DNA of 64,000 nucleotides, taken from the NCBI GenBank assembly GCA_016932995.1, contig JAFGBU010000018.1:35801-99800 (forward strand). The letters run 5' to 3'. The notes beneath the pieces were generated by a model. That model was not told the origin of the DNA and ran no database searches. It worked only from the letters and a program-made list of their open reading frames with translations. Source of the stretch: Desulfovibrionaceae bacterium. GTDB lineage: Bacteria; Desulfobacterota; Desulfovibrionia; Desulfovibrionales; Desulfovibrionaceae. Position numbers and translations under genes: made by a program. Below, in pieces: positions 24,324 through 52,117 of this stretch (position 1 is the stretch's first letter; each line of letters begins with the position of its first letter).

Positions 24324-24401
24324 ATCATAACCCCGGGTTTTCGGAGCGGATGAAAGGGGAAGGAAAGGGGCAATCAAAAGGATGGAAATTGGGGCTTGAC
24401 G
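24324..24401 (-). promoter_or_regulatory. Element A: GTCAA box - 66 bp - TATGAT, upstream of the capsid operon
   Basis: Minus strand: CGTCAA (24401-24396), 66 bp, TATGAT (24329-24324), about 158 bp before the capsid start. Between them lies CCATCCTTTT at positions 11-20 and CCCGGGGT just before the -10. This is one of six matching elements. Confidence 0.75.
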
Positions 24402-24426
24402 GGCCCCGGGACGGGGCCCGTCAAGC
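24394..24426. repeat. Perfect 14-bp inverted repeat around the GTCAA box of element A
   Basis: GCTTGACGGGCCCC (24394-24407) and GGGGCCCGTCAAGC (24413-24426), five-base loop. Both arms contain the GTCAA box, so it is present in both orientations. It lies just downstream of the terminator of the scaffold operon and could also fold in RNA, but no U tract follows. Confidence 0.7.
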
Positions 24427-24471
24427 CCGCCGCTTCCGCTGCCTAAAGACCGCCGGCCGCGAAAAGGGCGC

Positions 24472-24503
24472 AAAAAAAAGGGCCGGGCCCAAGGGCCCGG
24501 CCC
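24472..24503 (-). terminator. Intrinsic terminator of the portal-scaffold operon
   Basis: On the minus strand an 11-bp GC hairpin (GGGCCGGGCCC, two-base loop, 24503-24480) is followed by eight T. It starts 9 bp after the scaffold stop. It separates scaffold from capsid, which in phages normally share transcription. Confidence 0.85.
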
Positions 24504-24511
24504 GGTTGCGT

Positions 24512-25387
24512 TCAAACCCGGGCCTCTCGCCTGTACTGCCCTGGAAACAGGGCCTCGAAGCCCTTGACCACCTGGTCCACGAACTCGGGATCGCGCCTGG
24601 TCTGGTCGCAGTAGCGCGGGTCGCGCATCATCTCCCTGAGCTTGGCCAGGCTCAGGCCCCGGCCCTGGCCCTGACCGACGCCCCTGATGCGGCCCTCCAG
24701 GACCAGCGGGGCGACCCTGGCCAGGGCGTTGATGACCTCGCGCCTGTCCCCGGCCCCGGTGTCCTCCAAGGCCCCGAGCAGATCCTCGCCGCCCAGGGCC
24801 AGGGCCGCCTGTCTGGCGTCGTCCAGGACCCTGCCGGTCTCGCCCCGGTGCACCGAGCGCAGGGCCTCCAGTTCCTCGGACCTGCGCCTGCGGCCCCGCT
24901 CGTCCATCTCGGCCGCGGCCGCCAGGTTGAGCGGCACGAACCACTCGTAGAGCCCCCTGACCTGACCGGGCGTGAGCCCCAGCTCAAAGGCCTTGTCCCT
25001 GAACATGCCCCTGAGCTCCTCGTTGAGCTCAAAGCCCTCGGGCAGCTCGTCCAGGTCCGGGAACTCATAGCCCTCGGCGCTCTCGGGCCGGCCGATGGCC
25101 GCGAAAAAGGCCTCCCGCTGCTCGGCCCCGGCGTCCTCGCCCGGGACCTCGACCCAGCCCTCGGGCCTCTTGCCCAAAAGCCGCTGGGCGTGGACCAGGG
25201 CCTTGACCGCCTCGTCCTTGCTCCCGTACTTGGCCAGGGCCGGGTGCTCCCGGAGCGGGATCTCGACCTCCTGGCCGGATTCGTCCCGATGGACCACGGT
25301 CCAGTCCTTGGGCAGGTCCGCGCGCCAGTCGCTGCTCGGACCTGCCGGCCCCTCGGCCTTAAGCCTGATGTTCTTGGCCTTGCTCAT
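24512..25387 (-). CDS. Capsid assembly scaffold protein
   Basis: 291 residues, acidic and helix-rich, lying between portal and capsid, where gp9-like scaffolds sit. It contains DWRADLPKDWTVVHRDES and HPALAKYGSKDEAVKALVHAQRLLG, a pattern widespread in podovirus and siphovirus scaffold-like proteins, then GWVEVPGEDAG and PESAEGYEFPDLDELPEGFE (typical Ala/Glu/Asp stretch), and a basic C-terminus (YRREARV) suited to capsid binding. Last gene of the operon from element B; overlaps the Bbp19-like gene's end by 29 bp. Confidence 0.8.
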   Translation of the reverse strand: MSKAKNIRLKAEGPAGPSSDWRADLPKDWTVVHRDESGQEVEIPLREHPALAKYGSKDEAVKALVHAQRLLGKRPEGWVEVPGEDAGAEQREAFFAAIGRPESAEGYEFPDLDELPEGFELNEELRGMFRDKAFELGLTPGQVRGLYEWFVPLNLAAAAEMDERGRRRRSEELEALRSVHRGETGRVLDDARQAALALGGEDLLGALEDTGAGDRREVINALARVAPLVLEGRIRGVGQGQGRGLSLAKLREMMRDPRYCDQTRRDPEFVDQVVKGFEALFPGQYRREARV

Positions 25388-25610
25388 CGCCTTCCTCCAT
25401 GATGTTTTTGAAGTTTTCCTCGTCTTTCATGTGCATGACGTGCAGGACCATGGACCTGCGGCCCTCGTTGAACTGGATCCGGCCGGGGTGCGTGGAGAAC
25501 GTGGAGGCCCGGACAAAGCCCCGGCCCTTGAGGTCCTCCAGGACCGTGCGGCCGTCCGGGCCCTCGAAGAGCCGCTTGTAGGCCTGGTGCAGGCGCAATA
25601 TCTCCTTCAT
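25359..25610 (-). CDS. Bbp19-like phage protein
   Basis: 83 residues beginning MKEILRLHQAYKRLF. The middle RGFVRASTFSTHPGRIQFNEGRRSMVLHVM is close to the Bbp19-like domain found beside portal genes in podoviruses of the Bordetella BPP-1 group. Its role is unproven. ATG 25610 overlaps the portal stop (ATGA), so it is translationally coupled; its end overlaps the scaffold start. Good evidence that this block descends from a virus of that group. Confidence 0.7.
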   Translation of the reverse strand: MKEILRLHQAYKRLFEGPDGRTVLEDLKGRGFVRASTFSTHPGRIQFNEGRRSMVLHVMHMKDEENFKNIMEEGDEQGQEHQA

Positions 25611-27142
25611 GGCCTGCCCCCCGCCTGGCCCGCGGCCCTGCTCAGACGCAGCTCGGCCACGGCCTCGACCGGACGGACGTGGTCCGCGGGCATGCCGAAC
25701 AGCTCCGCCGCGTGCCTGGCTATGCGGTCGGTGTCGAAGTTGTCCACGACCCCCAGCTCGTCCCCCCGGGCCATGAACGGCGAGAGGTAGTCCATGGCCT
25801 GCATCAGGCCCTGGGCCTCGTACTGCCGCTGGGCCCGGGCCAGGGGCGAGGAGTAGACCACGGTCATATCCCCGGCCTCGACCCCGGCCGGCGGCTCGGG
25901 CAGCCGCCCGGCCCGGAGCATGATCCTGAACACCCGCTTGACCAGGGGGCACAGGAACTCGGTCTGCATCCGGCCCAGGACCGGGCCCAGGACGCGGACC
26001 TTTTCGCTCTGCCGGATCAGGGCCTCGGTGGCGCTCATGGCCGGGCCGCTGTCCGGGGCCAGCTGGTCGGCCATGAATATCCTGCGGATCGAGGCCCGCC
26101 TCTGCTCCATCATCCGCTCGGCCGCGCCCAGGTCCGCGCTGATCGGCAGGGCCTCGATGCGGTCCGTGGACCCGGCCCGGTAATAGGACAGCCCGCCCGG
26201 CCCGGAGCGCACCGGCCCCAGGAACCCGTCGTCCGGGACCATGAGCGGCGGGTCGGCCATCTTTTCCGAGGCCATGAGCGCGGTCCGGGCCATGGCGTTG
26301 AGCACGCGCGTGTCCGAAAGCGCGGTCAGGCCCGGTCCCCGGCCGTAGACCTCGCCCGCGGCCTTGGACCAGCGGGGCGCCATGTAGGGCATCTCCAGAT
26401 ACCCGGACTCCTCCAGGAGGTGTCCGGCCCTTGTCTCCAGGTACAGGCTGGCGAACGGGAAGTTGGCGCTGCCGAAACCCATGGGATCGCGGTCCTGCCT
26501 GGGGAACACGGCGTGCACTATCTCGACCTTGTCCTCGGGCCGGTCCCTGAACCTGGCCTTGAGCTCCCCGGAGCAGTCCTGCCCCCATTCCTGAAAGGCC
26601 TGGCGCGCCGTGAGCTCGTACTTGCGCAGCACCGTGTCCACCACCCCGCCGGCCGACTCGGACACAAAGACCTCGCCCAGGGGGCGGGTCGAGAACCTGA
26701 CCACGCTCGCCTCGTCCGCCTCCACGTACATGACCCCGATGCCGAACAGGGCCAGGTCCAGGTAGATCTCGTGGGCGTGGGCCTGAAATCCCGTGTCCTC
26801 GGAGTTGAAGACCGAGATCATGGCCTGGCGGCATTTCTCCAGGTAGTCCCGGACCTGCTGGCCGTCGCCCTCGGACCCGGCCCCGAGCCTGATGTCGAAC
26901 CAGGGCAGGGCCGGATTGGTCAGCAGCCCGCCCATGGCCGAGGCCAGAAGCTCCAGGGCGTTGCGCGGCGTGGAGTCGTATATGTTCTCGTCCCCGGCCC
27001 CGGAGGCCGGGCCCTGAAACCCGGCCCTGCGGGGCATGAAGTACCCGGACAGCTCCCGCCAGGTCCCGAGCCACTGCGAGCGCGCCTCGTCCATGGCCCC
27101 GAGACGGGCCAGGACCCTTTCAACCAGCTCCGCTGCAGCCAT
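25607..27142 (-). CDS. Portal (head-tail connector) protein
   Basis: 511 residues from ATG 27142, with GTG 27145 also possible. The N-terminus (WRELSGYFMPRRAGF) and the following YDSTPRNALELLASAMGGLLTNPALPWF are the standard podovirus connector start. The body continues through EIYLDLALFGIGVMYVEAD and PLMVPDDGFLGPVRSGPGGL. Residues about 330-355 have the RRIFMADQLAP loop. Twelve copies form the ring through which DNA is packaged, with the large terminase. Linked by TGATG to the small upstream gene. Confidence 0.88.
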   Translation of the reverse strand: MAAAELVERVLARLGAMDEARSQWLGTWRELSGYFMPRRAGFQGPASGAGDENIYDSTPRNALELLASAMGGLLTNPALPWFDIRLGAGSEGDGQQVRDYLEKCRQAMISVFNSEDTGFQAHAHEIYLDLALFGIGVMYVEADEASVVRFSTRPLGEVFVSESAGGVVDTVLRKYELTARQAFQEWGQDCSGELKARFRDRPEDKVEIVHAVFPRQDRDPMGFGSANFPFASLYLETRAGHLLEESGYLEMPYMAPRWSKAAGEVYGRGPGLTALSDTRVLNAMARTALMASEKMADPPLMVPDDGFLGPVRSGPGGLSYYRAGSTDRIEALPISADLGAAERMMEQRRASIRRIFMADQLAPDSGPAMSATEALIRQSEKVRVLGPVLGRMQTEFLCPLVKRVFRIMLRAGRLPEPPAGVEAGDMTVVYSSPLARAQRQYEAQGLMQAMDYLSPFMARGDELGVVDNFDTDRIARHAAELFGMPADHVRPVEAVAELRLSRAAGQAGGRP

Positions 27143-27468
27143 CACTCACCCAGCCTTTTCTTGAGCCCGGCCCTTTTGACCTCGGCCTCGTTCAAAAGTC
27201 CGGCCCCGCCGGTGACCAAGGTCGACCTCTGACCCTTGAGATCCTTGAGCCGCTTCTCCTCCAGCTCCCGGGCCCTGGCGACCTTCTCCCTCTTCTCGAC
27301 GCGCTCCTCGGCCTGTTTGCGCCTGGCCTCGGCCTCCTCCTCGGCCCGCCGGGCGGCCAGGTCCTCGGCCGCGGAGCCCTCATCCCGGTCCAGGGACCCG
27401 GCCAGGCCCGCGGCCGAGGACACCGCGCTGAAGACCAAAGGAATAATGGACATCGCTCCTCCTCCCAT
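27142..27468 (-). CDS. Small coiled-coil protein, first gene of the portal operon
   Basis: 108 residues (or 103 from the second ATG at 27453). A short hydrophobic start (SIIPLVFSAVSSAAGLAGSL) leads to a charged helix (AAEDLAARRAEEEAEARRKQ) and RSTLVTGGAGLLNEAEVKRAGLKKRLGE. Both candidate starts have a good GGAGG site. Composition resembles the 169-residue protein before the fibre gene. Probably a virion accessory protein; unknown role. The element B promoter is just upstream, giving a leader of about 30 nt. Confidence 0.6.
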   Translation of the reverse strand: MGGGAMSIIPLVFSAVSSAAGLAGSLDRDEGSAAEDLAARRAEEEAEARRKQAEERVEKREKVARARELEEKRLKDLKGQRSTLVTGGAGLLNEAEVKRAGLKKRLGE

Positions 27469-27504
27469 GACCTGTCCTCCTTGTTTTGGGGTCTGTGTGC
27501 CGGG

Positions 27505-27582
27505 ATCATAGGCCCGGGTTTGGGGCCCGGATCAAACAGGAAGGCGAAGGGCGAAAAAAAAGACCGGATTTACGGGTTGACA
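27505..27582 (-). promoter_or_regulatory. Element B: GTCAA box - 66 bp - TATGAT, upstream of the portal operon
   Basis: Minus strand: TGTCAA (27582-27577), 66 bp, TATGAT (27510-27505). Positions 11-20 of the spacer read CGGTCTTTTT, and CCCGGGCC is just before the -10. No good -35 lies 17 bp upstream of the -10. Confidence 0.8.
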
Positions 27583-27669
27583 GGTGCCCCAAGGGCCGGG
27601 GCGCGAGGTCGTCGGTGGTCCGCCCGGACCATTGGTCCAGGGCGGGAGCTTCGGGCCGCGCAGAGAGGC

Positions 27670-27747
27670 GGTCAATAGGCCAAGGCCGTCTTTTTTTGCC
27701 GCCCTCGGCTTGCTCTTTTTTCCGGGCCGAAAAACCCGGGCTATGCT
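27670..27747 (+). promoter_or_regulatory. Element F: GTCAA box - 66 bp - TATGCT, upstream of the gp11-like gene
   Basis: Plus strand: GGTCAA (27670-27675), 66 bp, TATGCT (27742-27747). Spacer positions 11-20 are CCGTCTTTTT, identical to element D, and CCCGGGC precedes the -10. It is the only plus-strand copy, and the only plus-strand phage gene follows. The transcript leader would be about 284 nt. Confidence 0.8.
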
Positions 27748-27929
27748 TGCGGCCGGGGACCCTTGCCGGACCCGGCCCGGCCCAAGGCGCGCCTCTCAGA
27801 CCCCAGGCGCTTCAGGAACCGGCCCCCGGGGCGGCAGACGAAATACCAGAAATTGGCCCCCGCGACCGCCAAGAGGAGGAAAAAGACGATGATCAACACC
27901 GGGATGCCCAACGCGCCAAGCCCACACAC
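27741..27929 (-). CDS. Possible small membrane protein, antisense to the gp11 leader
   Basis: 62 residues, GTG start (27929) behind GGGAGG with 7-bp spacing. It begins MCGLGALGIPVLIIVFFLLL and continues AVAGANFWYFV, a clear membrane helix, then a basic tail with decreasing coding quality. It lies entirely inside the leader that element F would transcribe, in opposite orientation, and its stop overlaps the -10 of F. No homologue recognised; the coding call rests on the ribosome site, the helix and G/C at third positions. Confidence 0.4.
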   Translation of the reverse strand: MCGLGALGIPVLIIVFFLLLAVAGANFWYFVCRPGGRFLKRLGSERRALGRAGSGKGPRPQA

Positions 27930-28037
27930 GGCCGCACCTCCCATGGCCGGGACCGCCGCGCGCCCCGGTCGGCCCAAGTGTACCTGTTTCACAACTCATG
28001 GCAACGCCTTTGCGGCGCAAACCCACAGGAGGAAATC

Positions 28038-28619
28038 ATGGCCGTCAGCGTGATCGAGATCTGCAACAACGCGCTCCTGGACCTCGGAGAGGAGACCATC
28101 ATGTCCCTGGGCGACGACTGCAAGGCGGCCAGGCTTTGCAATCAGCGCTGGAGGGCGATCCGGGACGCGGTTTTAAGGGCCCACCCCTGGAACTGCGCCA
28201 TGACCCAGGCCGAGCTGGCCGCCTGCGCCGGCTCCCCGATCTGGAAGTGGCGCTTCAGGTACCAGCTCCCCCCGGATTTTCTGCGCGTCATCAGCCTGGT
28301 CGCGATCAACGGCGAGGACCTTACCCAGTGGGAGATACAGGGAGGGGCCGTGCTCTGCGACGAGCCCGCGCCGCTCTATGCGGCCTACATCCGCCGCGAG
28401 ACCGACCCCCAGAAGTACGACCCGCTCCTGGACGAGGCCCTGTCCGCCAGGCTCTCGGCCAGCCTGGCCTACCCCCTGTCCGGGTCCACGTCCCTGGCCC
28501 AGGCCTTCTGGAACATCTACCAGCAGAGGCTGGCCGAGGCCCGCGGCGTGGACGCCCGCGAGGGCGTGCCGGAAAACATATCGCCCACGACCTGGCTGCG
28601 GGCCAAGCTCGGGGCCTGA
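28038..28619 (+). CDS. Tail tubular protein A-like (gp11-like)
   Basis: 193 residues, ATG 28038 behind AGGAGG. The sequence opens SVIEICNNALLDLGEETIMSL, then KAARLCNQRWRAIRDAVLRAHPWNCA, then FRYQLPPDFLRVISL, which is the signature series of gp11/tail-tube A proteins, and ends with an SASLAYPLSGS and FWNIYQQRLAEARGVDAREG helix. Forms the ring that joins portal to nozzle. Odd position: it is on the opposite strand to every other structural gene, 410 bp away from element F's -10 and 0.9 kb from the portal operon, and is followed by a host-type hydrolase gene. Confidence 0.88.
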   Translation: MAVSVIEICNNALLDLGEETIMSLGDDCKAARLCNQRWRAIRDAVLRAHPWNCAMTQAELAACAGSPIWKWRFRYQLPPDFLRVISLVAINGEDLTQWEIQGGAVLCDEPAPLYAAYIRRETDPQKYDPLLDEALSARLSASLAYPLSGSTSLAQAFWNIYQQRLAEARGVDAREGVPENISPTTWLRAKLGA

Positions 28620-28629
28620 GCGCCCGGGC

Positions 28630-29268
28630 TCAAGGCAGCAGGGCCACGGCCCGGACCGGGGAGCCGTCCATAACGTCGAGCTTGAGCGGCAGGCAGACAA
28701 AGGTGAAGCCCGCAGGCGGCAGGGCCTTCAACCCGGTCAGGTTCTCGACCACGAGCCCGAGCCCGGACAAGAGCAGACGGTGCGCGGCCAGGTCCGCGCC
28801 TTGCGCCGGGTCCGGGGACGGCGTGTCCAGGCCCAGGCCCATGAGCCCTTGGCCCGCGAGCAGCCGGGCGGCGTCCAGGGACAGCCCGGGGTAGGCGGAG
28901 AAGTAGTCGATTCGGCCCCAGCGCTCGCTCCAGTCGGTGCGCAAGAGCGCGAAACGGCCCGGGCAAAGCAGGTCCGAAAAGGGCTCGAGGTCCCGGGCCT
29001 CGATGATTCCCCGGCCCCGGCCGCTCAGGTCCAGGACGCAGCCCGGCCCGACAAAGGCCCCGACGGGCAGGTCGCGCAGGCCCGGGGCCCCGGCCAGGAC
29101 ATGGGCCGGCGCGTCCACGTGGGTGCCGGCGTGCGAGTCCATCTCCAGCCTGGACAGGGCAAAGCCGTGACTTTGAAGCCCGCGCGTCCGGACAAGGACC
29201 ACGGGCCCGTCCCCGGGAAACACGGGCGTGCCCGGACAAAGGGTCTGGCTCAGATCAACGACCTTCAA
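28630..29268 (-). CDS. Cyclase-family hydrolase (kynurenine formamidase-like)
   Basis: About 212 residues from TTG 29268, which follows GGGAGG; the ORF extends to 29313 without support. The hallmark metal motif HAGTHVDAPAH matches HxGTHxDxPxH of the cyclase family, whose members hydrolyse N-formylkynurenine and related amides and lactams using zinc or manganese. Other family patterns: VVDLSQTLCPGTPVFPGD at the start and GFTFVCLPLKLDVMDGSPVRAVALL at the end. Substrate unknown. A host-type gene wedged between phage-derived units; it is convergent with the gp11-like gene (10 bp between stops). Confidence 0.85.
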   Translation of the reverse strand: MKVVDLSQTLCPGTPVFPGDGPVVLVRTRGLQSHGFALSRLEMDSHAGTHVDAPAHVLAGAPGLRDLPVGAFVGPGCVLDLSGRGRGIIEARDLEPFSDLLCPGRFALLRTDWSERWGRIDYFSAYPGLSLDAARLLAGQGLMGLGLDTPSPDPAQGADLAAHRLLLSGLGLVVENLTGLKALPPAGFTFVCLPLKLDVMDGSPVRAVALLP

Positions 29269-29306
29269 CAAGGCCTCCCAAACCCCGCAAGGGCCACGGC
29301 CCGGGT

Positions 29307-29335
29307 TTGCCAACCGTGTTCCTTGGGGTTATGCT
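29307..29335 (+). promoter_or_regulatory. Host-type promoter before the 103-residue gene
   Basis: TTGCCA (29307-29312), 17 bp, TATGCT (29330-29335), preceded by CTTGGGGT. The -10 region resembles the phage-linked elements, but no GTCAA box lies 66 bp upstream. Confidence 0.5.
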
Positions 29336-29385
29336 TTTTATGGGTATCCCGGCCCGGCGCCGGGCCCAAAAACAGGACAAGGCGC

Positions 29386-29697
29386 ATGGTCCAGGCGCTC
29401 ACCGACCTCATACAGGCCGCCCCGGCCGGGAGCTTCATGGCCGGGCCCCCGGGCAGCTTCACGGCCGGACCCCCGGGACAGGTGGTCCCGGCCCCGGCCG
29501 GACACGTGCCCGTCGACACCTCGCCCGGCGGCCTGGACTCGTTCAGCATGGCCGTGATCAACGCCCCGGTGACCGTCAACCAGCCCGCGCCCTCCGAGGT
29601 CCGGCTGGTCGAGATCAGGGAGCGCACGGTGTTCATCGAGCAGACCATGGCCGCGCCGGAGAGGCCGGGCGGGGACATCGTCCTGGCCTCGGCATAG
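29386..29697 (+). CDS. 103-residue protein with Gly-Pro-rich repeats, unknown function
   Basis: ATG 29386 with a weak site AGGACAAGG. The N-terminal part has near-repeats GSFMAGPPGSFTAGPPG and is rich in Pro, Gly and Val; the C-terminal half (EVRLVEIRERTVFIEQTM) is more protein-like. No signal peptide and no recognised family. Own promoter (TTGCCA-17-TATGCT) about 50 bp upstream. It sits between two minus-strand genes and is not part of a phage unit by any motif. Confidence 0.45.
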   Translation: MVQALTDLIQAAPAGSFMAGPPGSFTAGPPGQVVPAPAGHVPVDTSPGGLDSFSMAVINAPVTVNQPAPSEVRLVEIRERTVFIEQTMAAPERPGGDIVLASA

Positions 29698-29735
29698 CCC
29701 CCGGCACAAGAACCTGGGTCAGGGACCGGGCCGGG

Positions 29736-30995
29736 TCAGGGAAGATACTTGGCCGGGTCAATGCCCATCTCCATGTGGTCCAGGCACTCCACGATCTTGC
29801 GGCCCGTGGACTCGATGGCCGCCAGGTCGATGACGTGGGGGGTCTTGGGCAACAGGTCCTTGTTCAGGATTATCTTGATCCTGGGTCTCAGGGGCTGGTC
29901 CGGGTTGGCCCCGACCACCACCCCGCACTCGCCGCTGGCCAGCCGGACCAGGCTGCCCACGGGATAGATGCCCAGGCACTTGATGAACCTCTCGACGTGC
30001 AGGGGATAGAAGTCCCGGCCGCCGAGGCCGTACATGATCTTGAGGGCCTTGTTCGAGGTCATGGGCTCCTTGTACACCCGGCGGCTGGTCAGGGCGTCGT
30101 ACACGTCCGCGACCCCTATGATCCTGGCCGCCGTGGATATCTGCGCCCCGGTCAGCCCCCTTGGGTAGCCCTTGCCGTTGTGCTTCTCGTGGTGCTCCAG
30201 CACGCCCCGGAGCACGTGCTCCGAGACCCTGGCCTGGGCCTTGATGATGTTGAAGCCCTCGGTGGGGTGGGCCTTGACCTTGCTGAACTCCTCATCGGTC
30301 AACCGGCCGGGCTTGTTGATGATCGGCTCCGGTATCCTGGCCTTGCCCACGTCGTGGAACAGCGCGGCCCTGGCCACGTCCAGGAGGTCCTCGGGCGAAA
30401 GCCCGAGAAACTTGCCGAACACCGCGGAGATGACCGCCACGTTGATCGAGTGGGTGTAGGTGTACTCGTCATAGGCCCGCAGCTGCTTCATGCTCATGAG
30501 CGCGTCCTCGTTGCGCATGACGCTCTCGATGACGTTCTCGACCAGGGGCGCGGCCTCCTCGTACTTGACCTGCCTGCCCATGCGCACGTCCTTGACGATG
30601 TCCCGGGCGAACTGGAGCGACTCGGTGTAGACCTTGCGGGCGGCCTCCATCTCCTGGTCCAGGGGGACGCGCTTCCTGGCCCTGGACAGCTCGGCCAGGT
30701 CCAGCCTGGGCCGCTTCCTGAACTTCAGGGCCCCCCGGATGAGCGCCTTTTCCCTCTCCAGGCTCTCGGCAATGGCCTCCTCGATGGCCACCCGGGACTC
30801 GACCTGCTCGGCCTTGGGGCCCTTCTCGGTGTCGATGAAGGCGCTCCGGTAGCCGAGACGGCGGACATTGTCCGCGGCCCTGCCCCTGAGCACGCCCTCC
30901 CTGGAGTACAGAAAGGGCTTCTCGACCCAGGTCAGGCCGGTGTCCACCACGTACATGCCGGACCTGAGGTCCTCTACCGGTATCTCCTTGATCAC
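29736..30995 (-). CDS. DUF3391/HD-GYP cyclic-di-GMP phosphodiesterase
   Basis: 419 residues from GTG 30995, which has GAGG upstream. The N-terminus (VEDLRSGMYVVDTGL) is a DUF3391-like domain. The HD-GYP domain (about 185-350) has HSINVAVIS, then ARAALFHDVGKARIPEPI, then LEHHEKHNGKGYPRGL, then DVYDALTSRRVYKEP; the HD, HHExxxGxGYP and DxxDALTSxRxY motifs are complete, so c-di-GMP hydrolysis is expected. A promoter is at 31082-31111. Sits between the gp11 unit and the terminase unit. Confidence 0.9.
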   Translation of the reverse strand: MIKEIPVEDLRSGMYVVDTGLTWVEKPFLYSREGVLRGRAADNVRRLGYRSAFIDTEKGPKAEQVESRVAIEEAIAESLEREKALIRGALKFRKRPRLDLAELSRARKRVPLDQEMEAARKVYTESLQFARDIVKDVRMGRQVKYEEAAPLVENVIESVMRNEDALMSMKQLRAYDEYTYTHSINVAVISAVFGKFLGLSPEDLLDVARAALFHDVGKARIPEPIINKPGRLTDEEFSKVKAHPTEGFNIIKAQARVSEHVLRGVLEHHEKHNGKGYPRGLTGAQISTAARIIGVADVYDALTSRRVYKEPMTSNKALKIMYGLGGRDFYPLHVERFIKCLGIYPVGSLVRLASGECGVVVGANPDQPLRPRIKIILNKDLLPKTPHVIDLAAIESTGRKIVECLDHMEMGIDPAKYLP

Positions 30996-31081
30996 CTGCG
31001 CCTCGGCTGAACACCGGCCGCTGGTCCGGCCGGGTCGTGTCCGGTTGCAAAGCCATGGGCCGGGTCCCGGCCATGGTCTCC

Positions 31082-31111
31082 TGCATAGCAAACCGGCCGG
31101 GCAAAGCTCAA
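31082..31111 (-). promoter_or_regulatory. Promoter of the HD-GYP gene
   Basis: Minus strand: TTGAGC (31111-31106), 18 bp, TATGCA (31087-31082). Located just after the stop of the terminase-linked gene. Not a GTCAA-66 element; an ordinary host spacing. Confidence 0.5.
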
Positions 31112-31115
31112 GGCC

Positions 31116-31472
31116 TTAAAGCTCCAGAAACGCGGCCTGGACAAGACAATGGCCCCTGAACCCGAACAGCGCGCTGAACTTGACCCAAGTCCGGTCCGGC
31201 CGGCCGCAGGGATCGGCCCGAAGGCCCACGATGCGCGCAAGGCCCCGGGACCTGGCGTGGGCCTTGAGCCACTCCAGGTCCCTTTCCAGCTCCCGCCTCG
31301 GCCCGGGGCCCCACCTCGAGATATCGAGGTGAAGCTCCAGGGCCTCATGGCGCTCGGCCAGCGCGGCCAGCCCGAAGACCCCGCGGCCGTCGGACAGCCG
31401 GAACCAGCGGTAGGACGAGGGCCCGGGCAGGCCGGCAAAGGCCCCGGGCCTGGTCGTTGTCTCCTCCAGCAT
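31116..31472 (-). CDS. Small protein co-transcribed with the large terminase
   Basis: 118 residues, ATG behind AAGGAGG, 30 bp after the terminase stop. Contains VFGLAALAERHEALELHLD and LVQAAFLEL, and a RRELERDLEWLKAHARSRGLARI helix, giving a layout somewhat like GNAT-related head-assembly proteins in podoviruses, but I could not confirm it. Terminase-linked, so probably virion or packaging related. Confidence 0.5.
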   Translation of the reverse strand: MLEETTTRPGAFAGLPGPSSYRWFRLSDGRGVFGLAALAERHEALELHLDISRWGPGPRRELERDLEWLKAHARSRGLARIVGLRADPCGRPDRTWVKFSALFGFRGHCLVQAAFLEL

Positions 31473-31502
31473 AAGGCCTCCTTTTTTTCCGGCCCCGGCC
31501 GC

Positions 31503-32942
31503 TCAGGACCCGGGCCTGAAGGGCGCGAACTCGTTGACCGAACGGGGCTGCCGGTCCCCGGACCCGGACCCGAGCAGCATCCGGCCCTCGCCGGCCCCGA
31601 TCATCAGGTATTGCCCGGCCTCGCAGACATGCGAGAAACGGTTCTTGTCCGGCCGGTCGAGGAAGCGCTCGCCTGCCGCGTCGCGCACCCTGCGCAGGCA
31701 ATAGCCCCCGGCCATGCCCTTCCTGAGCACCGGGCAGGCGGGCGAAAGCACCAGGCCGGGCGCGCCGTCCACAAGCCTGGACAGGGTCAGGGCCACGGCC
31801 TCGCGCCTGAGCAGGAAGTCGTTGCTCGGCGCGGGCCGCGCCGGGACGCCCACGGCCCGCAGGATGTCGAACGGCGTGCGCTCGTCCACCTGGCTGCGCT
31901 GCATGCCCGCAGGGTCCCCGAAGACCTCGATGTCCCAGCCCGCGTACCGGGCGTTCAGGCGCTTGCGCAGCAGCTCGGCGAAGCGGACCATGCCCATGTC
32001 CTCGGCCACCAGCTCGTCCAGCCATTGCCAGCGGCCCGAGGCCAGCCGCTGGCCGAAGACCGCGGCCGGGGTCAGGCCGAAGTCCAGGCCCACGAACAGG
32101 GGCAGGCCCGGGACCGGGGCCAGGTCCTGGCCGGCCAGGTGCACGGACTCCACGAACTCCGGGTACACCGGCCTGCCGTCCGATACGAACCCGTACTCGG
32201 CGCAGTAGTAGACCCGGACGTGATCCAGGGACTTTCCGGCCAGCCGCTTGCGGTAGTAGTCCGGGGGCAGGTTTTCGAGGTTCTCGGCGGCCGGGTTGGG
32301 GACAAAACCATCCCCGCGGCGCGTGAGCCCGCCGGGCTGGCGGAAGAACTCCCAGCCGGGCAGGACATTGGCCCGGGCCCGGCCCTCGGCCAGCTCGAAC
32401 CACCAGTGGTCCGTGTCCGGGGGGTTGGTGTCCATTATCACCCCGGCCCAGGCGCAGCCGCCCTCGCGCCTGGACGGGTAGCGCTCCACGCGGTCGCCCA
32501 CGGCGTCCACCAGGGCCTTGGGCACCTCGCGGGCCTCGTTGATCCAGGCCCCGGTCAACTCCAGGGACAGTATCCTGGACACGTCGCCGGGCCGGTCCAG
32601 GGCCCTGAACAGGACCTCCAGCTCCACGTCCGCGAAGCGCACCGAGTGGACCATGTCCGAACGCCTGAACGGGCCGAACGCGGCCTCGGGAAACCAGTCC
32701 AGCCAGGTCTTGAGGGTGGTGTCGGCCAGCTCCCGGTAGGTGTTGCGCACCACCAGCCAGCGCGTGCGCCTGACCCCGTCCGGACCCGGCCCCTGCTCCT
32801 TGGCCCGGCGCATGATCTCCATGCACATGGCCGTGGACTTGCCCGAGCCAACCGGCCCCATCACACCCCTGAAAAAGGCCTTGGAGGCGTGAAACCGGGC
32901 CAGGGTGGGCAGGGCCGAGTATCTGGTCCTGTGTGCGGGCAT
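31503..32942 (-). CDS. terL: Terminase large subunit
   Basis: 479 residues, ATG behind AAGGAGG. Walker A GPVGSGKST (29-37), a Walker B region ILSLELTGAWINEARE, a coupling-motif region VIMDTNPPDTDHWW, then a nuclease domain with the acidic triad context FVGLDFGLTPAAVFG and EVFGDPAGM. The motor pumps DNA into the head and the nuclease cuts it; whether it cuts at a specific site (cos/pac) or headful at random is not shown. Complete. Transcribed from element C with a short leader (about 20 nt). Confidence 0.92.
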   Translation of the reverse strand: MPAHRTRYSALPTLARFHASKAFFRGVMGPVGSGKSTAMCMEIMRRAKEQGPGPDGVRRTRWLVVRNTYRELADTTLKTWLDWFPEAAFGPFRRSDMVHSVRFADVELEVLFRALDRPGDVSRILSLELTGAWINEAREVPKALVDAVGDRVERYPSRREGGCAWAGVIMDTNPPDTDHWWFELAEGRARANVLPGWEFFRQPGGLTRRGDGFVPNPAAENLENLPPDYYRKRLAGKSLDHVRVYYCAEYGFVSDGRPVYPEFVESVHLAGQDLAPVPGLPLFVGLDFGLTPAAVFGQRLASGRWQWLDELVAEDMGMVRFAELLRKRLNARYAGWDIEVFGDPAGMQRSQVDERTPFDILRAVGVPARPAPSNDFLLRREAVALTLSRLVDGAPGLVLSPACPVLRKGMAGGYCLRRVRDAAGERFLDRPDKNRFSHVCEAGQYLMIGAGEGRMLLGSGSGDRQPRSVNEFAPFRPGS

Positions 32943-32971
32943 GAACCCTCCTTGCTGCGAATCCTGCGCGC

Positions 32972-33049
32972 ATTATACCCCGGGCCCGGGGGCCGGACAA
33001 AAAAAGAACCAAAAAAGACCTGCGCAAGGAAGACCGGACCCGGTTGACA
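32972..33049 (-). promoter_or_regulatory. Element C: GTCAA box - 66 bp - TATAAT, upstream of the terminase gene
   Basis: Minus strand: TGTCAA (33049-33044), 66 bp, TATAAT (32977-32972). TTGTCC lies 17 bp upstream of the -10, so this copy also has a weak -35. CCCGGGG precedes the -10. Spacer has two TCTT-type tracts. Confidence 0.8.
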
Positions 33050-33070
33050 GCCTGGCGAGCGCCCCGAACG

Positions 33071-33099
33071 TTGACTCGGCCGGGGGCTCGCGCAATAAA
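33071..33099 (+). promoter_or_regulatory. Promoter of the TPR lipoprotein gene
   Basis: TTGACT (33071-33076), 17 bp, AATAAA (33094-33099). The start codon begins at 33105, about where transcription should start, and there is no Shine-Dalgarno sequence. Confidence 0.55.
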
Positions 33100-33104
33100 C
33101 AATC

Positions 33105-33983
33105 ATGAGCCGAAAAAAACACCGCCCGGCCCGCAGCCGGGCTGTCCTGGCCGCGGTCCTGGCCCTGCTGCTTTCGGCCTGCGCGGCAAGGGCCCCGGGC
33201 GAAGCCAACATGGCCGCGGACGACTACTTCGAGCGCGGCCGCGGCTACATCTTTTTCAAGAAGCCCCGCAAGGCCCTCCCGGACTTCGACACGGCCATCG
33301 CCCTGGACCCGGACAACGCCGAGTACCACTACACCAGGGGCGCGGCCTACACCCAGATCGGGGAGCACGCCAAGGCGCTCAAGGACTACGACCAGGCCAT
33401 CGCCCTGGATCCGGGACACGCCGAGCCCTACCTGGCCCGGGGCATCTCCCTGCACCACCTGGGCGACGACGCCGGGGCGGTCAGGGACATCTCCAGGGCC
33501 ATCGAGCTCAAGCCCGGCAAGGTGGAGGCGTACTACGCCCGGGGCGTGAGCCTGCTCGGGCTGGGCAAGAACGCCCAGGCCATCGACGACCTCTCCAGGG
33601 CCGTGGCCATGGACCCGGAAAACCCCGGGGCCTACGCGGCCAGGGCCTCGGCCTGGGCGCTCCTGGGCAGACACGGCCCGGCCGCGGCCGACTACTCGAA
33701 GGCCATCGCCCTGGACCCGGCCATGGCCGCGGCCTACTCGGGCCGGGCCATGAGCCGGGCCGCAACCGGCGACCTCGAATCGGCCGAACAGGACCTGTCC
33801 AGGGCCATTGTCCTGGACCCGGAAAACCCGGCCCTGAGAATGGACCGGGCCGGGATCAACCTGGGCCTGGGCCGGCCGGACAAGGCCGCCGAGGACCGCG
33901 AAGCAGCCGCCCTGCTCAGGGCCCGGCCGGCCCAGGCCGGGCGGCCTAGTCCTTTTCCCCCTCAGGGTCCGGATCCCCGCTGA
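33105..33983 (+). CDS. TPR-repeat lipoprotein
   Basis: 292 residues. Lipobox LLLSACAAR about residues 20-28, so outer- or inner-membrane anchored. Six or seven consecutive tetratricopeptide repeats of 34 residues (for example HYTRGAAYTQIGEHAKALKD and the next with AIALDPGHAEPYLARGISLH). Ends PFPPQGPDPR. Probably translated from a leaderless mRNA (promoter -10 immediately upstream, no ribosome site). Host-type gene lying between the terminase subunits; its last 38 bp overlap the antisense end of the small terminase gene. Function is protein binding in general; the partner is unknown. Confidence 0.85.
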   Translation: MSRKKHRPARSRAVLAAVLALLLSACAARAPGEANMAADDYFERGRGYIFFKKPRKALPDFDTAIALDPDNAEYHYTRGAAYTQIGEHAKALKDYDQAIALDPGHAEPYLARGISLHHLGDDAGAVRDISRAIELKPGKVEAYYARGVSLLGLGKNAQAIDDLSRAVAMDPENPGAYAARASAWALLGRHGPAAADYSKAIALDPAMAAAYSGRAMSRAATGDLESAEQDLSRAIVLDPENPALRMDRAGINLGLGRPDKAAEDREAAALLRARPAQAGRPSPFPPQGPDPR

Positions 33984-34374
33984 GATTCATCTCCAGGATC
34001 ACCCCGGCCGGGCCCTGGTCCTGGTCCCGGCCCCCGGCCTGGGAGTATTTTTCCGGACGATGGGCCCTGAGCATGAACATGGTCAGGGCGTCGGAGTACC
34101 TGGTCACCGAGCCGCACTCCCGGCCCTGGTAGAACACCGGGGTCTCGACCCCCTTGGCCGCCCTGCGCAGGGCCTCGGCCTCGAGGGCGTCCAGGGCCTC
34201 GTCCAGGGCCTCGACCCAGGCCGCGGCGAACTCCGGATCAGAGTCCTTGACCTGATAGGCCCTGCTGCGGGATATGCCCGCGGCCCTGGCCGCGGCCGAC
34301 ACGTTGGCCGTTTCGCGCAACACCGCCAAAAACCTGTCCCTGCCGGCTTGCGTAAACTTGACACGCCTGGCCAT
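33946..34374 (-). CDS. terS: Terminase small subunit
   Basis: 142 residues from ATG 34374 behind GGGGAGG. An N-terminal HTH (NVSAAARAAGISRSRAYQV) like the DNA-recognition domain of small terminases, a DALEAEALRRAAKGV helix, and the GSVTRYSDALTMFMLRAHRPEKY block, a frequent C-terminal feature of such proteins. It recognises DNA to be packaged and stimulates the large subunit. It lies 1 kb away from terL, separated by the TPR lipoprotein gene, which is unusual. The 3-prime end is antisense to that gene. Second in the element D operon. Confidence 0.8.
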   Translation of the reverse strand: MARRVKFTQAGRDRFLAVLRETANVSAAARAAGISRSRAYQVKDSDPEFAAAWVEALDEALDALEAEALRRAAKGVETPVFYQGRECGSVTRYSDALTMFMLRAHRPEKYSQAGGRDQDQGPAGVILEMNLSGDPDPEGEKD

Positions 34375-34387
34375 GCGCCTCCCCTGT

Positions 34388-34687
34388 TCACGGGATCGCC
34401 CTTTTGACCCTGAGCTGGGCCTGGATGTCCAGCAGGGCGCCCTGGATCCCCTTTGTGCGTTCGTCGATGCGCTCAACCTTTGCCGCGGTTGTCCGGGCCT
34501 CCTCCAGCCGCTGCTCGACCTTGGCCATGGACGCCTCGATCGCGTCCAGCCTGGCCGATATCCCGACCACCAGGGAAACGGCCAGCGCAAGGCTGGTCCC
34601 GGCCGCGACCAGGGCGCCGAGGTTTATGCGCCCATCCAGCCACCAGCCGCTGAAACAGGACCTCTGTTCGTTGTTCGATCCGCTCAT
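34388..34687 (-). CDS. Membrane-anchored coiled-coil protein before terS
   Basis: 99 residues, ATG behind AGGGG. A transmembrane helix (about 22-44, LGALVAAGTSLALAVSLVVG) followed by a long heptad-rich region (about 45-90, EASMAKVEQRLEEARTTAAK). This layout is similar to spanin- or Rz-like proteins, but no lipobox partner is seen. First gene from element D; 13 bp before terS. Possibly part of the lysis step; unconfirmed. Confidence 0.6.
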   Translation of the reverse strand: MSGSNNEQRSCFSGWWLDGRINLGALVAAGTSLALAVSLVVGISARLDAIEASMAKVEQRLEEARTTAAKVERIDERTKGIQGALLDIQAQLRVKRAIP

Positions 34688-34769
34688 GCGCCACCCCTGC
34701 GTTGACGGTCATTCAAGCAAACAAGGCCGGACCCGCGGGACCGCGGCCCTCGGGGCCCGGGCCTGACGA

Positions 34770-34847
34770 AGTATAACCCCGAACCCGGGCGCGGCGGTGC
34801 ATAAGCCTTGAAACGGATGGGAAAAAGACGGCATTGGCCCATTGACA
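34770..34847 (-). promoter_or_regulatory. Element D: GTCAA box - 66 bp - TATACT, upstream of the terS operon
   Basis: Minus strand: TGTCAA (34847-34842), 66 bp, TATACT (34775-34770). Spacer positions 11-20 CCGTCTTTTT; CGGGGT precedes the -10. Confidence 0.8.
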
Positions 34848-34879
34848 AGGGCCCCTGGGCCGGGCCCGGGATCAAAGGC

Positions 34880-35245
34880 CTAGGCCAGGCCCTTTTGCCT
34901 CAGGAACAGGCCGAGCTTGGAATCGACCTTGACGATGTGCTCCCGGCACCAGGTTGAGGCAAAGTCGATGAAGTCCTTGGGCACGAGCTCCATCTTCAAG
35001 AACCTGGCCTCGAGCTTGAACGGCTCGCGGATGAAATTGTCGTGCAGGCCCTGGCCGAGTCCGTCTCGCAGTCCCAGTAGGGCGGATACAGGTAGAACAC
35101 CGTGCCGGGGCGGGCATAACGCCGAATCACATCGACGTAGGGCAGGCACTCGATGAGCGCCCAGGCCGCGCCGCAGAACGGCTCGCAGTAGCAGGGCTTC
35201 CCGCCTTCAATCCTTAGCAAGTCCGGGGGGATCGGGCAAGGCGGC
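34880..35245 (-). pseudogene. Decayed DNA adenine methylase remnant joined to a hemerythrin-like end
   Basis: Going 5-prime to 3-prime on the minus strand, one frame reads PPDLLRIEGGKPCYCEPFCG and then YARPGTVFYLYPPYWDCETD. These are the first motif (EPFxG) and the DPPY-type motif of Dam-like methylases with most of the middle deleted and Asp replaced by Tyr. The frame then shifts. The continuation in the next frame (GLGQGLHDNF, then DFASTWCREHIVKVDSKLGL and FLRQKG) matches a bacteriohemerythrin C-terminus (W, HI, D ligands). No start codon with a site opens either part. Probably a dead recombination product downstream of the holin gene. Confidence 0.55.
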
Positions 35246-35249
35246 CGGA

Positions 35250-35663
35250 TCAGGGGCCCTTGGCCCTGCCCATGGCCCCGAGCACGCCCCTCACGGCCGC
35301 GGGCAGGTAGTCGCCGACCTTTTTCACGCCCAGGACCGCGGCCACTATCCAGAAGGTGATCTCCAGAAACCAGCGCGGCAGATCGGACCAGGCGGACAGG
35401 ACCCGCCGGGCCCCTTCCGGGCAAAACCCGCTCCAGACGAAAAAGGCCAGCCAGGCGTAGAACAGGACGTCGTCCTTCCAGCCCGCGTTCTCAAGCTGGC
35501 GCATCTCCCACTCGTGGTTGCACTCCCTGTCCGAGCGGGCCAGGCGCATGCGGTTCTCCATGACCGCCTGCTTGAGCTCCTGCTTGCGTTTCAGGTGCCC
35601 GGTCACGCCCTCCACCACCGCGGTCGCCAGTCCGGCCACCGCGCCTATGATCGGTATGGGCAT
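35250..35663 (-). CDS. Three-TM holin-type protein, gene-transfer-agent holin family
   Basis: 137 residues, ATG 35663 behind AAGGAGG. Three hydrophobic segments (about 1-20, about 67-83 and about 104-120), a charged KRKQELKQAVMENRMRLARS helix, and ENAGWKDDVLFYAWLAFFVW, a layout matching the three-TM holin family first named for gene transfer agents (GWKDE-type motif, Pro-rich turn, G-x-K-K end GVKKVGDYL). Holins open the membrane to release virions or particles. Transcribed from element E with a leader of about 14 nt. Family assignment is from memory of the pattern and should be checked. Confidence 0.7.
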   Translation of the reverse strand: MPIPIIGAVAGLATAVVEGVTGHLKRKQELKQAVMENRMRLARSDRECNHEWEMRQLENAGWKDDVLFYAWLAFFVWSGFCPEGARRVLSAWSDLPRWFLEITFWIVAAVLGVKKVGDYLPAAVRGVLGAMGRAKGP

Positions 35664-35683
35664 ATGGACCTCCTTTTTCGCGC

Positions 35684-35761
35684 ATCCTAACCCCGCATAA
35701 CGGCTTGGTAAGGGAAAGGGATGGTTCGGGAAGGCAACGGGACTCCTTTGACCGCTTGACA
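35684..35761 (-). promoter_or_regulatory. Element E: GTCAA box - 66 bp - TAGGAT, upstream of the holin gene
   Basis: Minus strand: TGTCAA (35761-35756), 66 bp, TAGGAT (35689-35684). CGGGGT precedes the -10. This copy has a second GTCAA eight bases further on (GCGGTCAAAGG) and the weakest -10. Confidence 0.75.
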
Positions 35762-51508: not shown

Positions 51509-51961
51509 TCATATCCGGCCGGACAAGGCCCCCTCGTCCGGCCCGGCGTTTTCAGCCCAGCGAACCTCTGCCACCATGAGCTCCGGATCGTCCCGGCCCT
51601 CAAGCGCGTCCAGGAACAGGCCAAAGGCCTCCCTGGACCCGAGCACGGCCCTGTCGCCGCCCAGGCTCCCGACGCCGGTTCCGACAAGGATGCAGCCCCG
51701 GGTGTCCCGGGCGGTGTTTCCGGCGTGAAAAAGTATCTCGCTGCGGCTCGGGACCGCGCAGACCTCAAATGTCGGGCCGAAGCGCGGCGAGACCACCCTT
51801 CGGCACCTGTAACTCCCGGCCGGGATGCAGGATTTGTCCCGGACATTGCCCAGAGACGGCGGCTCCAGGGTCAGGCAGAATATCCGCCCGTCGAGCAGGA
51901 GCGCGCCGAGGGTCTCCTGCCCTGACATCTCCAGCCTGACCAGCCTGAGTTGCGGACCCAC
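51509..51961 (-). CDS. DUF5675-like phage-associated protein
   Basis: 150 residues, GTG start behind GGGAGG. LGALLLDGRIFCLTLEPPSL, then the conserved CIPAGSYRC and FEVCAVPSRSEILFHAGNTA (the FEVxxVPxRxxILFHxGNxxxDTxGC pattern) and TRGCILVGTG are the DUF5675 features. Family members are found in phage and prophage cassettes near lysis genes; the function is not known. It shares a divergent promoter region with the repressor gene. Confidence 0.7.
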   Translation of the reverse strand: MGPQLRLVRLEMSGQETLGALLLDGRIFCLTLEPPSLGNVRDKSCIPAGSYRCRRVVSPRFGPTFEVCAVPSRSEILFHAGNTARDTRGCILVGTGVGSLGGDRAVLGSREAFGLFLDALEGRDDPELMVAEVRWAENAGPDEGALSGRI

Positions 51962-51997
51962 CTTTCCTCCCTGACCCGGACGATTTGTAAGACTTTT

Positions 51998-52049: not shown

Positions 52050-52050
52050 T

Positions 52051-52079: not shown

Positions 52080-52117
52080 AACCCTCTGAAATGAGTAAAA
52101 TTGCCTGGGGGAGCAAG

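What the first reader, a model, noticed from the sequence alone, without database searches (positions are those of the whole stretch)
24324..35761. Six-copy bipartite element with an invariant 66-bp spacer in front of every phage-derived transcription unit
Six elements have a GTCAA box, exactly 66 bp, then a -10-like hexamer, always read in the direction of the gene behind it. A: CGTCAA 24401-24396 / TATGAT 24329-24324. B: TGTCAA 27582-27577 / TATGAT 27510-27505. C: TGTCAA 33049-33044 / TATAAT 32977-32972. D: TGTCAA 34847-34842 / TATACT 34775-34770. E: TGTCAA 35761-35756 / TAGGAT 35689-35684. F (plus strand): GGTCAA 27670-27675 / TATGCT 27742-27747. I counted the spacer in each copy. Spacer positions 11-20 are near-identical in B, D and F (C/G, GTCTTTTT) and similar in A; CCCGGG or CGGGG just precedes most -10 hexamers. 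The -35 position is weak in nearly all copies, so an activator that binds the GTCAA box and T-tract is a natural explanation. I found none before host genes in this window, where TTGAC-17-(-10) is the rule. A GTCAA box at such a rigid distance (about seven helical turns) is not a known promoter class to me.
Basis: seen in the sequence. Interest (0 to 1): 0.94.

Follow-up and report, generated by a model that had tools for sequence, protein, structure and literature searches.

The report
Shared promoter of scattered phage genes
Six copies of one long promoter-like element stand before the structural genes of an apparently domesticated phage, and the same element precedes the matching phage genes and Rhs toxin-like genes in related bacteria, where it would likely let one phage-repressor-type protein switch on a predicted gene-transfer particle.

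Summary
A sequence profile finds the element in 77 of 288 family genomes, up to 25 per genome, before the same podovirus-type units and before 23 of 25 Rhs genes that keep their start, including this genome's only detected Rhs gene. Its presence tracks the major capsid gene: 53 of 55 genomes; the other two matched a second profile.

The anatomy is a GTCAA box, helically phased A/T tracts, a conserved non-consensus -35 (TYRTCC), mostly 17-18 bp, and a -10. The box-to-(-35) distance is quantised: 41-42 or 50-51 bp in 68 of 74 pairs.

The likely regulator is a CI-like protein at 52118-52870. Orthologues (three as pieces) accompany 53 of 55 capsid genes and lie near them. In eight genomes known to carry a perfect TTGACW-N7-WGTCAA palindrome just upstream of it, that is the only copy in the genome in five. 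Two orthologues with a different DNA-binding domain belong to genomes without convincing elements. Binding, activation and particle formation are untested.

The parts
24324..24401 (-). Element A (CGTCAA-N66-TATGAT), in front of the major capsid gene
   Evidence: profile R1 53.8 bits
27505..27582 (-). Element B (TGTCAA-N66-TATGAT), in front of the portal/scaffold unit
   Evidence: R1 56.6 bits
27670..27747 (+). Element F (GGTCAA-N66-TATGCT), in front of the tail tubular protein gene
   Evidence: R1 46.8 bits
32972..33049 (-). Element C (TGTCAA-N66-TATAAT), in front of the large terminase gene
   Evidence: R1 37.3 bits
34770..34847 (-). Element D (TGTCAA-N66-TATACT), in front of a small gene and the small terminase gene
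   Evidence: R1 34.4 bits
35684..35761 (-). Element E (TGTCAA-N66-TAGGAT), in front of a holin-like gene
   Evidence: R1 32.7 bits
23336..24166 (-). Major capsid protein gene
   Evidence: PF19821 4.3e-73, phrog_3437
24512..25387 (-). Scaffold-like gene
   Evidence: phrog_3742 (unknown function) 1.3e-18; PF05396 T7 capsid assembly below its cut-off
25607..27145 (-). Portal (head-tail connector) gene
   Evidence: PF12236 3.3e-145
28038..28619 (+). Tail tubular protein gene
   Evidence: phrog_394 tail protein 1.5e-50, phrog_9239 tail tubular 4.6e-13
31503..32942 (-). Terminase large subunit gene
   Evidence: phrog_2 3.2e-23
33949..34374 (-). Terminase small subunit gene
   Evidence: phrog_4044 2.5e-39
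35250..35663 (-). Small protein gene behind element E, read as holin-like
   Evidence: phrog_2524 (unknown function) 1.4e-07; 68% identical in three relatives next to terS/terL; 'holin-like' is my reading of position and hydrophobic stretches, from no call
20911..23013 (-). Tail protein gene (own element in relatives, none of its own here)
   Evidence: phrog_376 6.3e-186; cluster c6, first gene in 6 of 9
17997..20315 (-). Tail fibre-like gene
   Evidence: phrog_1640 tail protein 5.4e-29, N-terminal part
52118..52870 (+). R: CI-like regulator (XRE-type HTH plus S24 domain), candidate for the protein that reads the GTCAA box; the open frame starts at 52091
   Evidence: phrog_4 5e-11; fold matches lambda CI, weaker LexA and UmuD'; co-occurrence and linkage; palindrome in relatives
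51962..52117 (.). Intergenic region between R and a divergent DUF5675 gene; GTCAA at 52000-52004 and 52018-52022, TGTCAAGACA at 52017-52026, TGTCTTTAGACA at 52039-52050
   Evidence: read; relatives
51509..51961 (-). DUF5675 gene, divergent from R
   Evidence: PF18925 4.6e-30; phrog_1501

Best explanation
The six elements are copies of one promoter class that precedes phage-structural units here and, in related genomes, the scattered matching units and most Rhs genes with an intact start, and they are likely switched by one CI-like protein (R, window 52118-52870) predicted to bind the GTCAA box and to activate a sigma70-type core promoter whose -35 lies about 42 bp further down. Shown: the shared architecture (GTCAA box; A/T tracts with a 10.5-11 bp period; -35-like TYRTCC; mostly 17-18 bp; TANNNT), its conservation, the quantised box-to-core distance, the gene set behind it, and R's co-occurrence, linkage and WGTCAA palindrome. 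Inferred: R binds the half-site about 80 bp upstream of the predicted start, the phased tracts curve or stiffen the linker so that R lies on a fixed face of the helix, and R then recruits polymerase to a weak core, as class I activators or GafY do. The genes look like a dispersed, vertically kept gene-transfer-agent-like set, co-regulated with Rhs proteins; the particle is predicted.
For: Element profile in 77 of 288 family genomes; up to 25 per genome. Capsid and portal modules behind it in 9 relatives plus the window. Element and close capsid gene together: 53 of 55 capsid genomes at E<=0.01, 0 of 5 genomes with only a distant capsid homologue; the two exceptions, G143 and G333, gave weak R2 matches (E about 2e-4) that read as GTCAA elements before a tail gene and the portal unit. 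R2: 12 of 13 genus-g5 genomes tried and 0 of 10 genomes of other genera tried besides the own. Among 92 distinct cores, TGTCAA to the -35 is 41-42 bp 47 times, 50-51 bp 21 times, 30 bp once, with 5 scattered singles; three control hexamers together once. Periodicity: 0 of 200 shuffles reach the observed power at 10.5 bp in either class. R: in 53 of 55 capsid genomes, 3 of them as pieces; median distance to the capsid gene 59 kb in 15 genomes of one or two contigs. Palindrome TTGACW-N7-WGTCAA upstream of R: perfect in 9 of 30 sequences (29 genomes), at most one mismatch in 13, never perfect with any other spacer from 0 to 13; of 12 genomes searched whole, the 8 already known to have it carry 1 to 4 copies each, and in 5 the copy at R is the only one. 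HTH domain changed in G023 and G031 (31-34% identity to the window copy against 55-77% in the others, S24 domain kept at 61-67%), and neither has a convincing element.
Against: No binding, transcript or particle data. The co-occurrence of R, capsid gene and element may partly reflect one clade: genomes are not independent, and no neutral clade-specific gene was run as a control. 24 of the 77 element genomes at E<=0.01 lack the close capsid gene (6 of 51 at E<=1e-4). A further 51 genomes have weaker R homologues that I excluded by a threshold of my own (E<1e-70), and 5 R genomes lack the close capsid gene. G332 and G343 have elements and the capsid gene but no R match; G351, with 14 elements, has R only as two pieces, and G327's R match contains a stop. 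This window's own R lacks the palindrome (4 mismatches) and has direct GTCAA repeats instead; G331, G013, G028 and G000 have no perfect palindrome anywhere. GTCAA/TTGAC is dense upstream of R (61 in 29 sequences, shuffled 10.2), but TTGAC is also a -35 and upstream regions of other window genes hold 0 to 3. R belongs to a family named for repression, and its Caulobacter counterpart RogA represses (PMC9632790, passages). The terminase behind the elements in G130, G325, G331 and G351 is of another type than here (clusters c17 and c38). Elements C, D and E of the window match the inner boxes poorly. The model elements were collected by requiring GTCAA and TANNNT, so invariance of those letters is partly by construction; one R1 match reads GTCAG. 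G026, with a close terminase and R1 matches (best E 1e-5), has no R2 match.
Confidence: 0.6

Rival explanations
1. R is a direct repressor: it occupies the GTCAA box and, in class I elements, the TTTTGTCC copies including the -35, and the units come on when R is removed, as in prophage induction.
For: R is CI-like (fold); many class I elements carry TGTC at the box and again at the -35 (TTGTCC is the -35 in 23 of 80); most orthologues keep Ser, Lys and an Ala-Gly motif.
Against: Class II elements and five of the six window elements lack TGTC at the -35; the -35 is non-consensus, as in activator-dependent promoters; the Lys is Arg here and in L344, L350, L356, L360 and L365, and Ser is lost in L350 and L356, so cleavage seems dispensable in several lineages.
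Confidence: 0.2
2. Another, unidentified activator (GafY-like) reads the box, and R controls only itself and perhaps that activator, as RogA controls gafYZ.
For: Caulobacter precedent: far-upstream GafY site plus IHF plus sigma70 core, with the S24-like RogA acting one step above (PMC11150451 and PMC9632790, passages). No GafA/GafY homologue was searched for, so one is not excluded.
Against: R's own palindrome half-site WGTCAA is the box itself; the IHF consensus is not enriched in the elements. Among the clusters behind elements that I inspected (nine proteins scanned) no regulator was seen; not every first gene was annotated.
Confidence: 0.2
3. The elements are only inherited decorations of an old phage late-promoter set in decaying prophage remnants, without current function.
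For: Phage relatives exist; some Rhs cassettes and R copies are broken.
Against: Open capsid frames with mostly 68-78% identity across genera, presence in nearly all listed members of those genera, the same architecture at unlinked loci, and copies before Rhs genes; the 14 viral contigs found by capsid search, four of them with 68-71% capsid identity, have no R1 match.
Confidence: 0.07
4. Chance or an artefact of reading many hexamers.
For: Single hexamer pairs at a given distance do occur: with the bare pattern 78 of 99 relatives have a match, with control counts of the same order by eye, not summed.
Against: 6 against 0.08 expected in the window and profile matches down to E 6e-21 in relatives.
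Confidence: 0.01

Closest known systems
GafY/IHF-dependent GTA promoter of Caulobacter (and GafA of Rhodobacter)
   Same: Far-upstream regulator site, intervening bendable DNA, sigma70-type core, control of phage-derived units.
   Different: No IHF consensus enrichment; the candidate regulator is CI-like, and a GafA homologue was not looked for; podovirus-type genes; the element is repeated before many units with a quantised distance.
RogA (Caulobacter LexA-like, S24-like GTA regulator)
   Same: HTH plus S24-like domain; RogA lacks the catalytic residues, and so do some copies here; tied to a GTA or GTA-like set.
   Different: RogA was found only at gafYZ and one other promoter and represses; R's half-site lies at the structural promoters themselves.
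Class I activator-dependent sigma70 promoters (CRP type; recalled)
   Same: Upstream site whose helical face relative to the core matters.
   Different: Single GTCAA half-site, phased A/T tracts, unusual conserved -35 TYRTCC and a conserved AAAACCGGGG-like stretch in the spacer.
Gene transfer agents, including Dd1 of Desulfovibrio desulfuricans and the podovirus-like FpGTA
   Same: Phage structural genes scattered in the host genome and kept in nearly all listed members of genera; podovirus type as claimed for FpGTA (PMC12946183, passages).
   Different: No particle shown here; relation to the Dd1 locus (TerS Ddes_0720, PMC6854486, passages) was not tested; co-regulated Rhs genes.

Membership tests
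Gene transfer agent | Phage-derived capsid, portal, terminase and tail genes | tested here: met
Gene transfer agent | Long-term vertical maintenance | tested here: met
   Close capsid gene in 35 of the 36 g5 genomes, 13 of 15 g29, 3 of 3 g14 and 3 of 3 g28 that appear; genomes without any match are not listed there, so these denominators are minima, and no host tree was compared
Gene transfer agent | Genes dispersed over the host genome | tested here: met
   Units on several contigs or more than 100 kb apart in relatives; in the window they lie within about 18 kb
Gene transfer agent | No own replication or integration genes | tested here: inconclusive
   None among the cluster proteins scanned; the whole genome was not scanned for them
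Gene transfer agent | Particles package host DNA at random | not testable with these tools
   needs particle DNA sequencing
GafY/IHF-type GTA promoter | IHF site between activator site and core | tested here: not met
   IHF consensus with at most 1 mismatch in 1 (forward) and 2 (reverse) of 88 elements, shuffled 1.25; only the E. coli-type consensus (recalled) was tried
GafY/IHF-type GTA promoter | GafA/GafY homologue | not tested
   no search made
CI/LexA-like regulators | HTH plus S24-like domain of CI/LexA fold | tested here: met
   phrog_4, and phrog_6201 in orthologues; Foldseek 2ho0 (lambda CI) E 6.4e-4, LexA 3.2e-3, UmuD' 2e-2; model pTM 0.61; no sequence match in the PDB
CI/LexA-like regulators | Intact Ser/Lys autocleavage pair | tested here: not met
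   Lys replaced by Arg in the window copy (position assigned by analogy with LexA, recalled); intact in most orthologues
Class I activator-dependent promoter | Activity depends on helical phase of the upstream site | tested here: inconclusive
   Natural distances are quantised; activity not testable
Rhs proteins | RHS/YD-repeat shell domain | tested here: met
   PF25023 4e-23 above cut-off in one of two scanned; 37.2 bits, below the cut-off of 50, in the other

The most novel reading that the evidence does not exclude
A single CI-like protein turned activator runs a scattered regulon, through a promoter class whose linker length moves in whole helical turns, that builds a domesticated podovirus particle together with an arsenal of Rhs polymorphic toxin-like proteins, so that particle release and toxin deployment are one coupled programme in dozens of Desulfovibrio-type species.
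Probability: 0.3. Interest if true: 0.95.

Novelty: new variant of a known kind. Interest (0 to 1): 0.83.

Why it matters
It gives a sequence handle that finds a scattered phage-derived regulon by its promoter rather than by its genes, ties it to a named candidate regulator, and links a gene-transfer-like system to Rhs genes. A review says that GTAs outside the alphaproteobacteria, Desulfovibrio's included, have had only cursory characterisation (PMC11841831, passages). The naturally quantised linker lengths make helical-phase activation from a distance directly testable by comparison and by reporters.

Tried and rejected
Bare pattern across 99 relatives: not informative by eye against its control column, replaced by a profile. 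Divergent promoter reading of TTGACA on the other strand: no matching -10 seen by eye in the copies inspected, no count made. IHF linker: not enriched. Known RNA families or tRNA in the window: none. Phage late-promoter origin: of the viral contigs searched with R1 (30 of the 94 fetched, together with 8 other loci) only L254 has an element (37.1 bits; L044, a bacterial locus, gave a partial 15.9 bits); L254 has no R homologue in the part held. PDB relatives of R by sequence: none. Gene at 41811-42974: Phage_integrase plus TOBE, recalled as TunR-like, not pursued as regulator. Literature: no paper in the library holds both Pseudodesulfovibrio and gene transfer agent; gene transfer agent with Rhs and polymorphic toxin gives two papers, seen as listing and abstract starts only, neither on this subject; the listings show no description of this element. 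Names: Humidesulfovibrio and Desulfocurvus come from record titles, Paucidesulfovibrio from the contig length shared by P0011 and G053:C8; that g5 is Pseudodesulfovibrio is my guess and comes from no call. Some early coordinates were in the wrong frame (searches failed and were corrected).
Full report
The observation. The six elements stand as described: a GTCAA box, 66 bp, TA[TG][AG][ACT]T, each read toward the gene behind it. In the window this spacing has 6 hits, the other spacings from 30 to 100 average 0.29, and Markov sequences average 0.08. The genome is 2.48 Mb in 49 contigs.

The genes. The units are podovirus type: capsid (PF19821), a scaffold-like gene (weak T7 match), portal (PF12236), tail tubular protein, large and small terminase, tail and fibre. 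Host-type genes lie among them (an HD-domain gene, a TPR gene, a cyclase-like gene; these names are my reading of the sequence and come from no family search).

Conservation. Large-terminase homologues with E below 1e-130 occur in 12 genomes besides G000 among 198 searched; capsid homologues in 18 loci of named genomes, 13 at 72-78% identity and 5 at 49-55%. GTCAA-N65/66-TANNNT lies upstream of the capsid gene in 12 of those 13 (the thirteenth starts 60 bp before the gene) and is present in 9 of the 10 terminase loci at 65-71% identity; the two at 49-51% have none convincing. Thirty-eight elements were aligned and turned into a sequence-only profile, R1. R1 finds 77 of 288 family genomes at E<=0.01 and up to 25 sites per genome when scored fully (G122). 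Weak matches in genus g40 and others are probably chance: the second profile R2 gave none in the three g40 genomes with the best R1 scores.

What lies behind the elements. One search lists 99 matches in nine genomes; I entered 84, of which 83 were covered by fetched stretches, and with the window's six compared 89 downstream stretches. Orthologous frames recur as first or early genes: capsid (11 frames, 10 first), the portal unit, tail, tail tubular, holin-like, small terminase. The large terminase is of this window's type in some genomes (c38) and of another type in G130, G325, G331 and G351 (c17). The largest cluster (45 frames, 26 first) is made of Rhs/YD-repeat proteins with variable ends, judged from six of its members. 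Of 25 Rhs matches that keep the N-terminus in ten genomes, 23 have an element within 401 bp upstream; one of the two misses starts at a contig end. This genome has one Rhs match with the query used, and its gene is preceded by a seventh 66-bp element.

Dispersal and maintenance. In G013 most of the units lie together and the capsid gene lies about 40-60 kb away; in G028, G122, G130, G331 and G351 the units are spread over several contigs or more than 100 kb. Close capsid gene and element coincide in 53 of 55 capsid genomes at E<=0.01, with 24 element-only genomes; at E<=1e-4 it is 45 of 55, with 6 element-only genomes. The two capsid genomes without an R1 match, G143 and G333, were searched with R2 and showed elements before the tail gene and the portal unit. 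The 14 viral contigs found by capsid search, four with 68-71% capsid identity, have no R1 match; in the two longest of those four (L235, L237) the morphogenesis genes lie in one run.

Anatomy. In 80 of 89 elements a -35-like and a -10 hexamer could be assigned: GTCAA to -10 is 64-66 bp in 59, 74-75 in 20 and 61 in one; GTCAA to the -35 is 41-43 bp in 58, 50-51 in 19 and 39, 44 or 53 in three; -35 to -10 is mostly 17 or 18 bp; nine elements have no TANNNT at an accepted place. A search that starts from 92 distinct core promoters gives 47 at 41-42 bp, 21 at 50-51, one at 30 and 5 scattered singles. Single instances of 54 bp (G351) and 86 bp (own genome, contig C30, R2 21.6 bits) were checked. 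Because loci were partly gathered with R1, lengths far from the profile are under-sampled. A/T tracts have strong power at 10-11.5 bp in both classes, 0 or 1 of 200 shuffles of their runs reaching it; the sequences within a class are related. The spacer between -35 and -10 ends in a conserved AAAACCGGGG-like stretch, unexplained.

The regulator. R (52118-52870) has an N-terminal HTH and an S24-like domain, matches phage repressor families, and its model resembles lambda CI and, more weakly, LexA and UmuD' (mean pLDDT 81.9, pTM 0.61). With E<1e-70 as my threshold, plus three genomes with pieces, R occurs in 58 of 288 genomes, 53 of them among the 55 with the close capsid gene; 51 further genomes have weaker homologues, taken as paralogues by threshold only. 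In 14 single-contig genomes and G351 (two contigs) R lies a median of 59 kb, at most 484 kb, from the capsid gene (some genome lengths are rounded; the genomes are related, so the p value is not corrected). Upstream of R, TTGACW-N7-WGTCAA is perfect in 9 of 30 sequences (one genome, G348, is in twice) and within two mismatches in 21. Twelve whole genomes were searched for it: the eight put in because they have it carry 1 to 4 copies, one of them at R in each, and in five no other copy exists; the four others have none; the reversed control matches once each in G351 and G013. The half-site WGTCAA is the box of the elements. Orthologues in G023 and G031 keep the S24 domain but have another HTH, and those genomes have no R2 match; G031 has one weak R1 match (E 0.0072).

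Mechanism, with status of each step. Shown: element, phase-like lengths, gene set, co-occurrence, palindrome. Inferred: R binds the box; the phased tracts shape the linker; polymerase is recruited to a weak core; the products form a particle; Rhs proteins are made at the same time. Against activation stands the repressor ancestry of R. For it stand the far-upstream place of the box, the non-consensus -35 and the absence of TGTC at the -35 in class II and in five of the six window elements.

Known systems. In Caulobacter GafY binds far upstream, IHF lies between, and the core is sigma70-dependent (PMC11150451, passages). RogA, LexA-like without catalytic residues, represses gafYZ (PMC9632790, passages). 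GafA binds near the -35 and on flanking fragments in Rhodobacter (PMC9638019, passages). A podovirus-like GTA-like element is claimed as the first in Faecalibacterium (PMC12946183, passages). D. desulfuricans, host of Dd1, has a predicted TerS, Ddes_0720 (PMC6854486, passages); I did not compare it.

Verdict. A real, conserved, apparently undescribed promoter class of a dispersed phage-derived and Rhs regulon, with a strong candidate regulator. 'Undescribed' rests on the listings in an open-access library only.

Noticed in passing
G000 contig C30:60414-60512 (L386): A further element-like site in the own genome with GTCAA and TATGAT 86 bp apart (R2 21.6 bits), before a small gene with a CEKC...HPNC-type stretch that seems split over two frames.
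   Followed up: partly
window 41811-42974 (-): Protein with Phage_integrase and TOBE domains, recalled as like the tungsten-responsive TunR of Desulfovibrio rather than a prophage integrase.
   Followed up: no
window 28630-29313 (-): Cyclase-like gene (my reading) with homologues near phage units in several relatives (G013, G053, L063, L064, L066, L067), reason unknown.
   Followed up: no
G130, G122, G351 Rhs loci: Short Rhs C-terminal pieces follow several full genes, like orphan cassettes of polymorphic toxin loci.
   Followed up: partly
G351:C1:366824-367666 (L359): R is split into two frames although the genome keeps 14 elements; the palindrome in front of it is intact.
   Followed up: no
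L254:7802-7890: An IMG/VR contig carries a 74-bp element with about five near-tandem TTTTTCGTCC-like units of about 10-11 bp, upstream of a terminase 60% identical to this one.
   Followed up: partly
most aligned elements, between -35 and -10: Conserved AAAACCGGGG-like stretch, sometimes a CCGG-AAAA-CCGG dyad, just upstream of the -10.
   Followed up: no
window 51509-51961 (-): DUF5675 gene divergent from R and sharing its GTCAA-rich control region; a similar divergent frame seems to be present upstream of several orthologues, seen by eye.
   Followed up: partly
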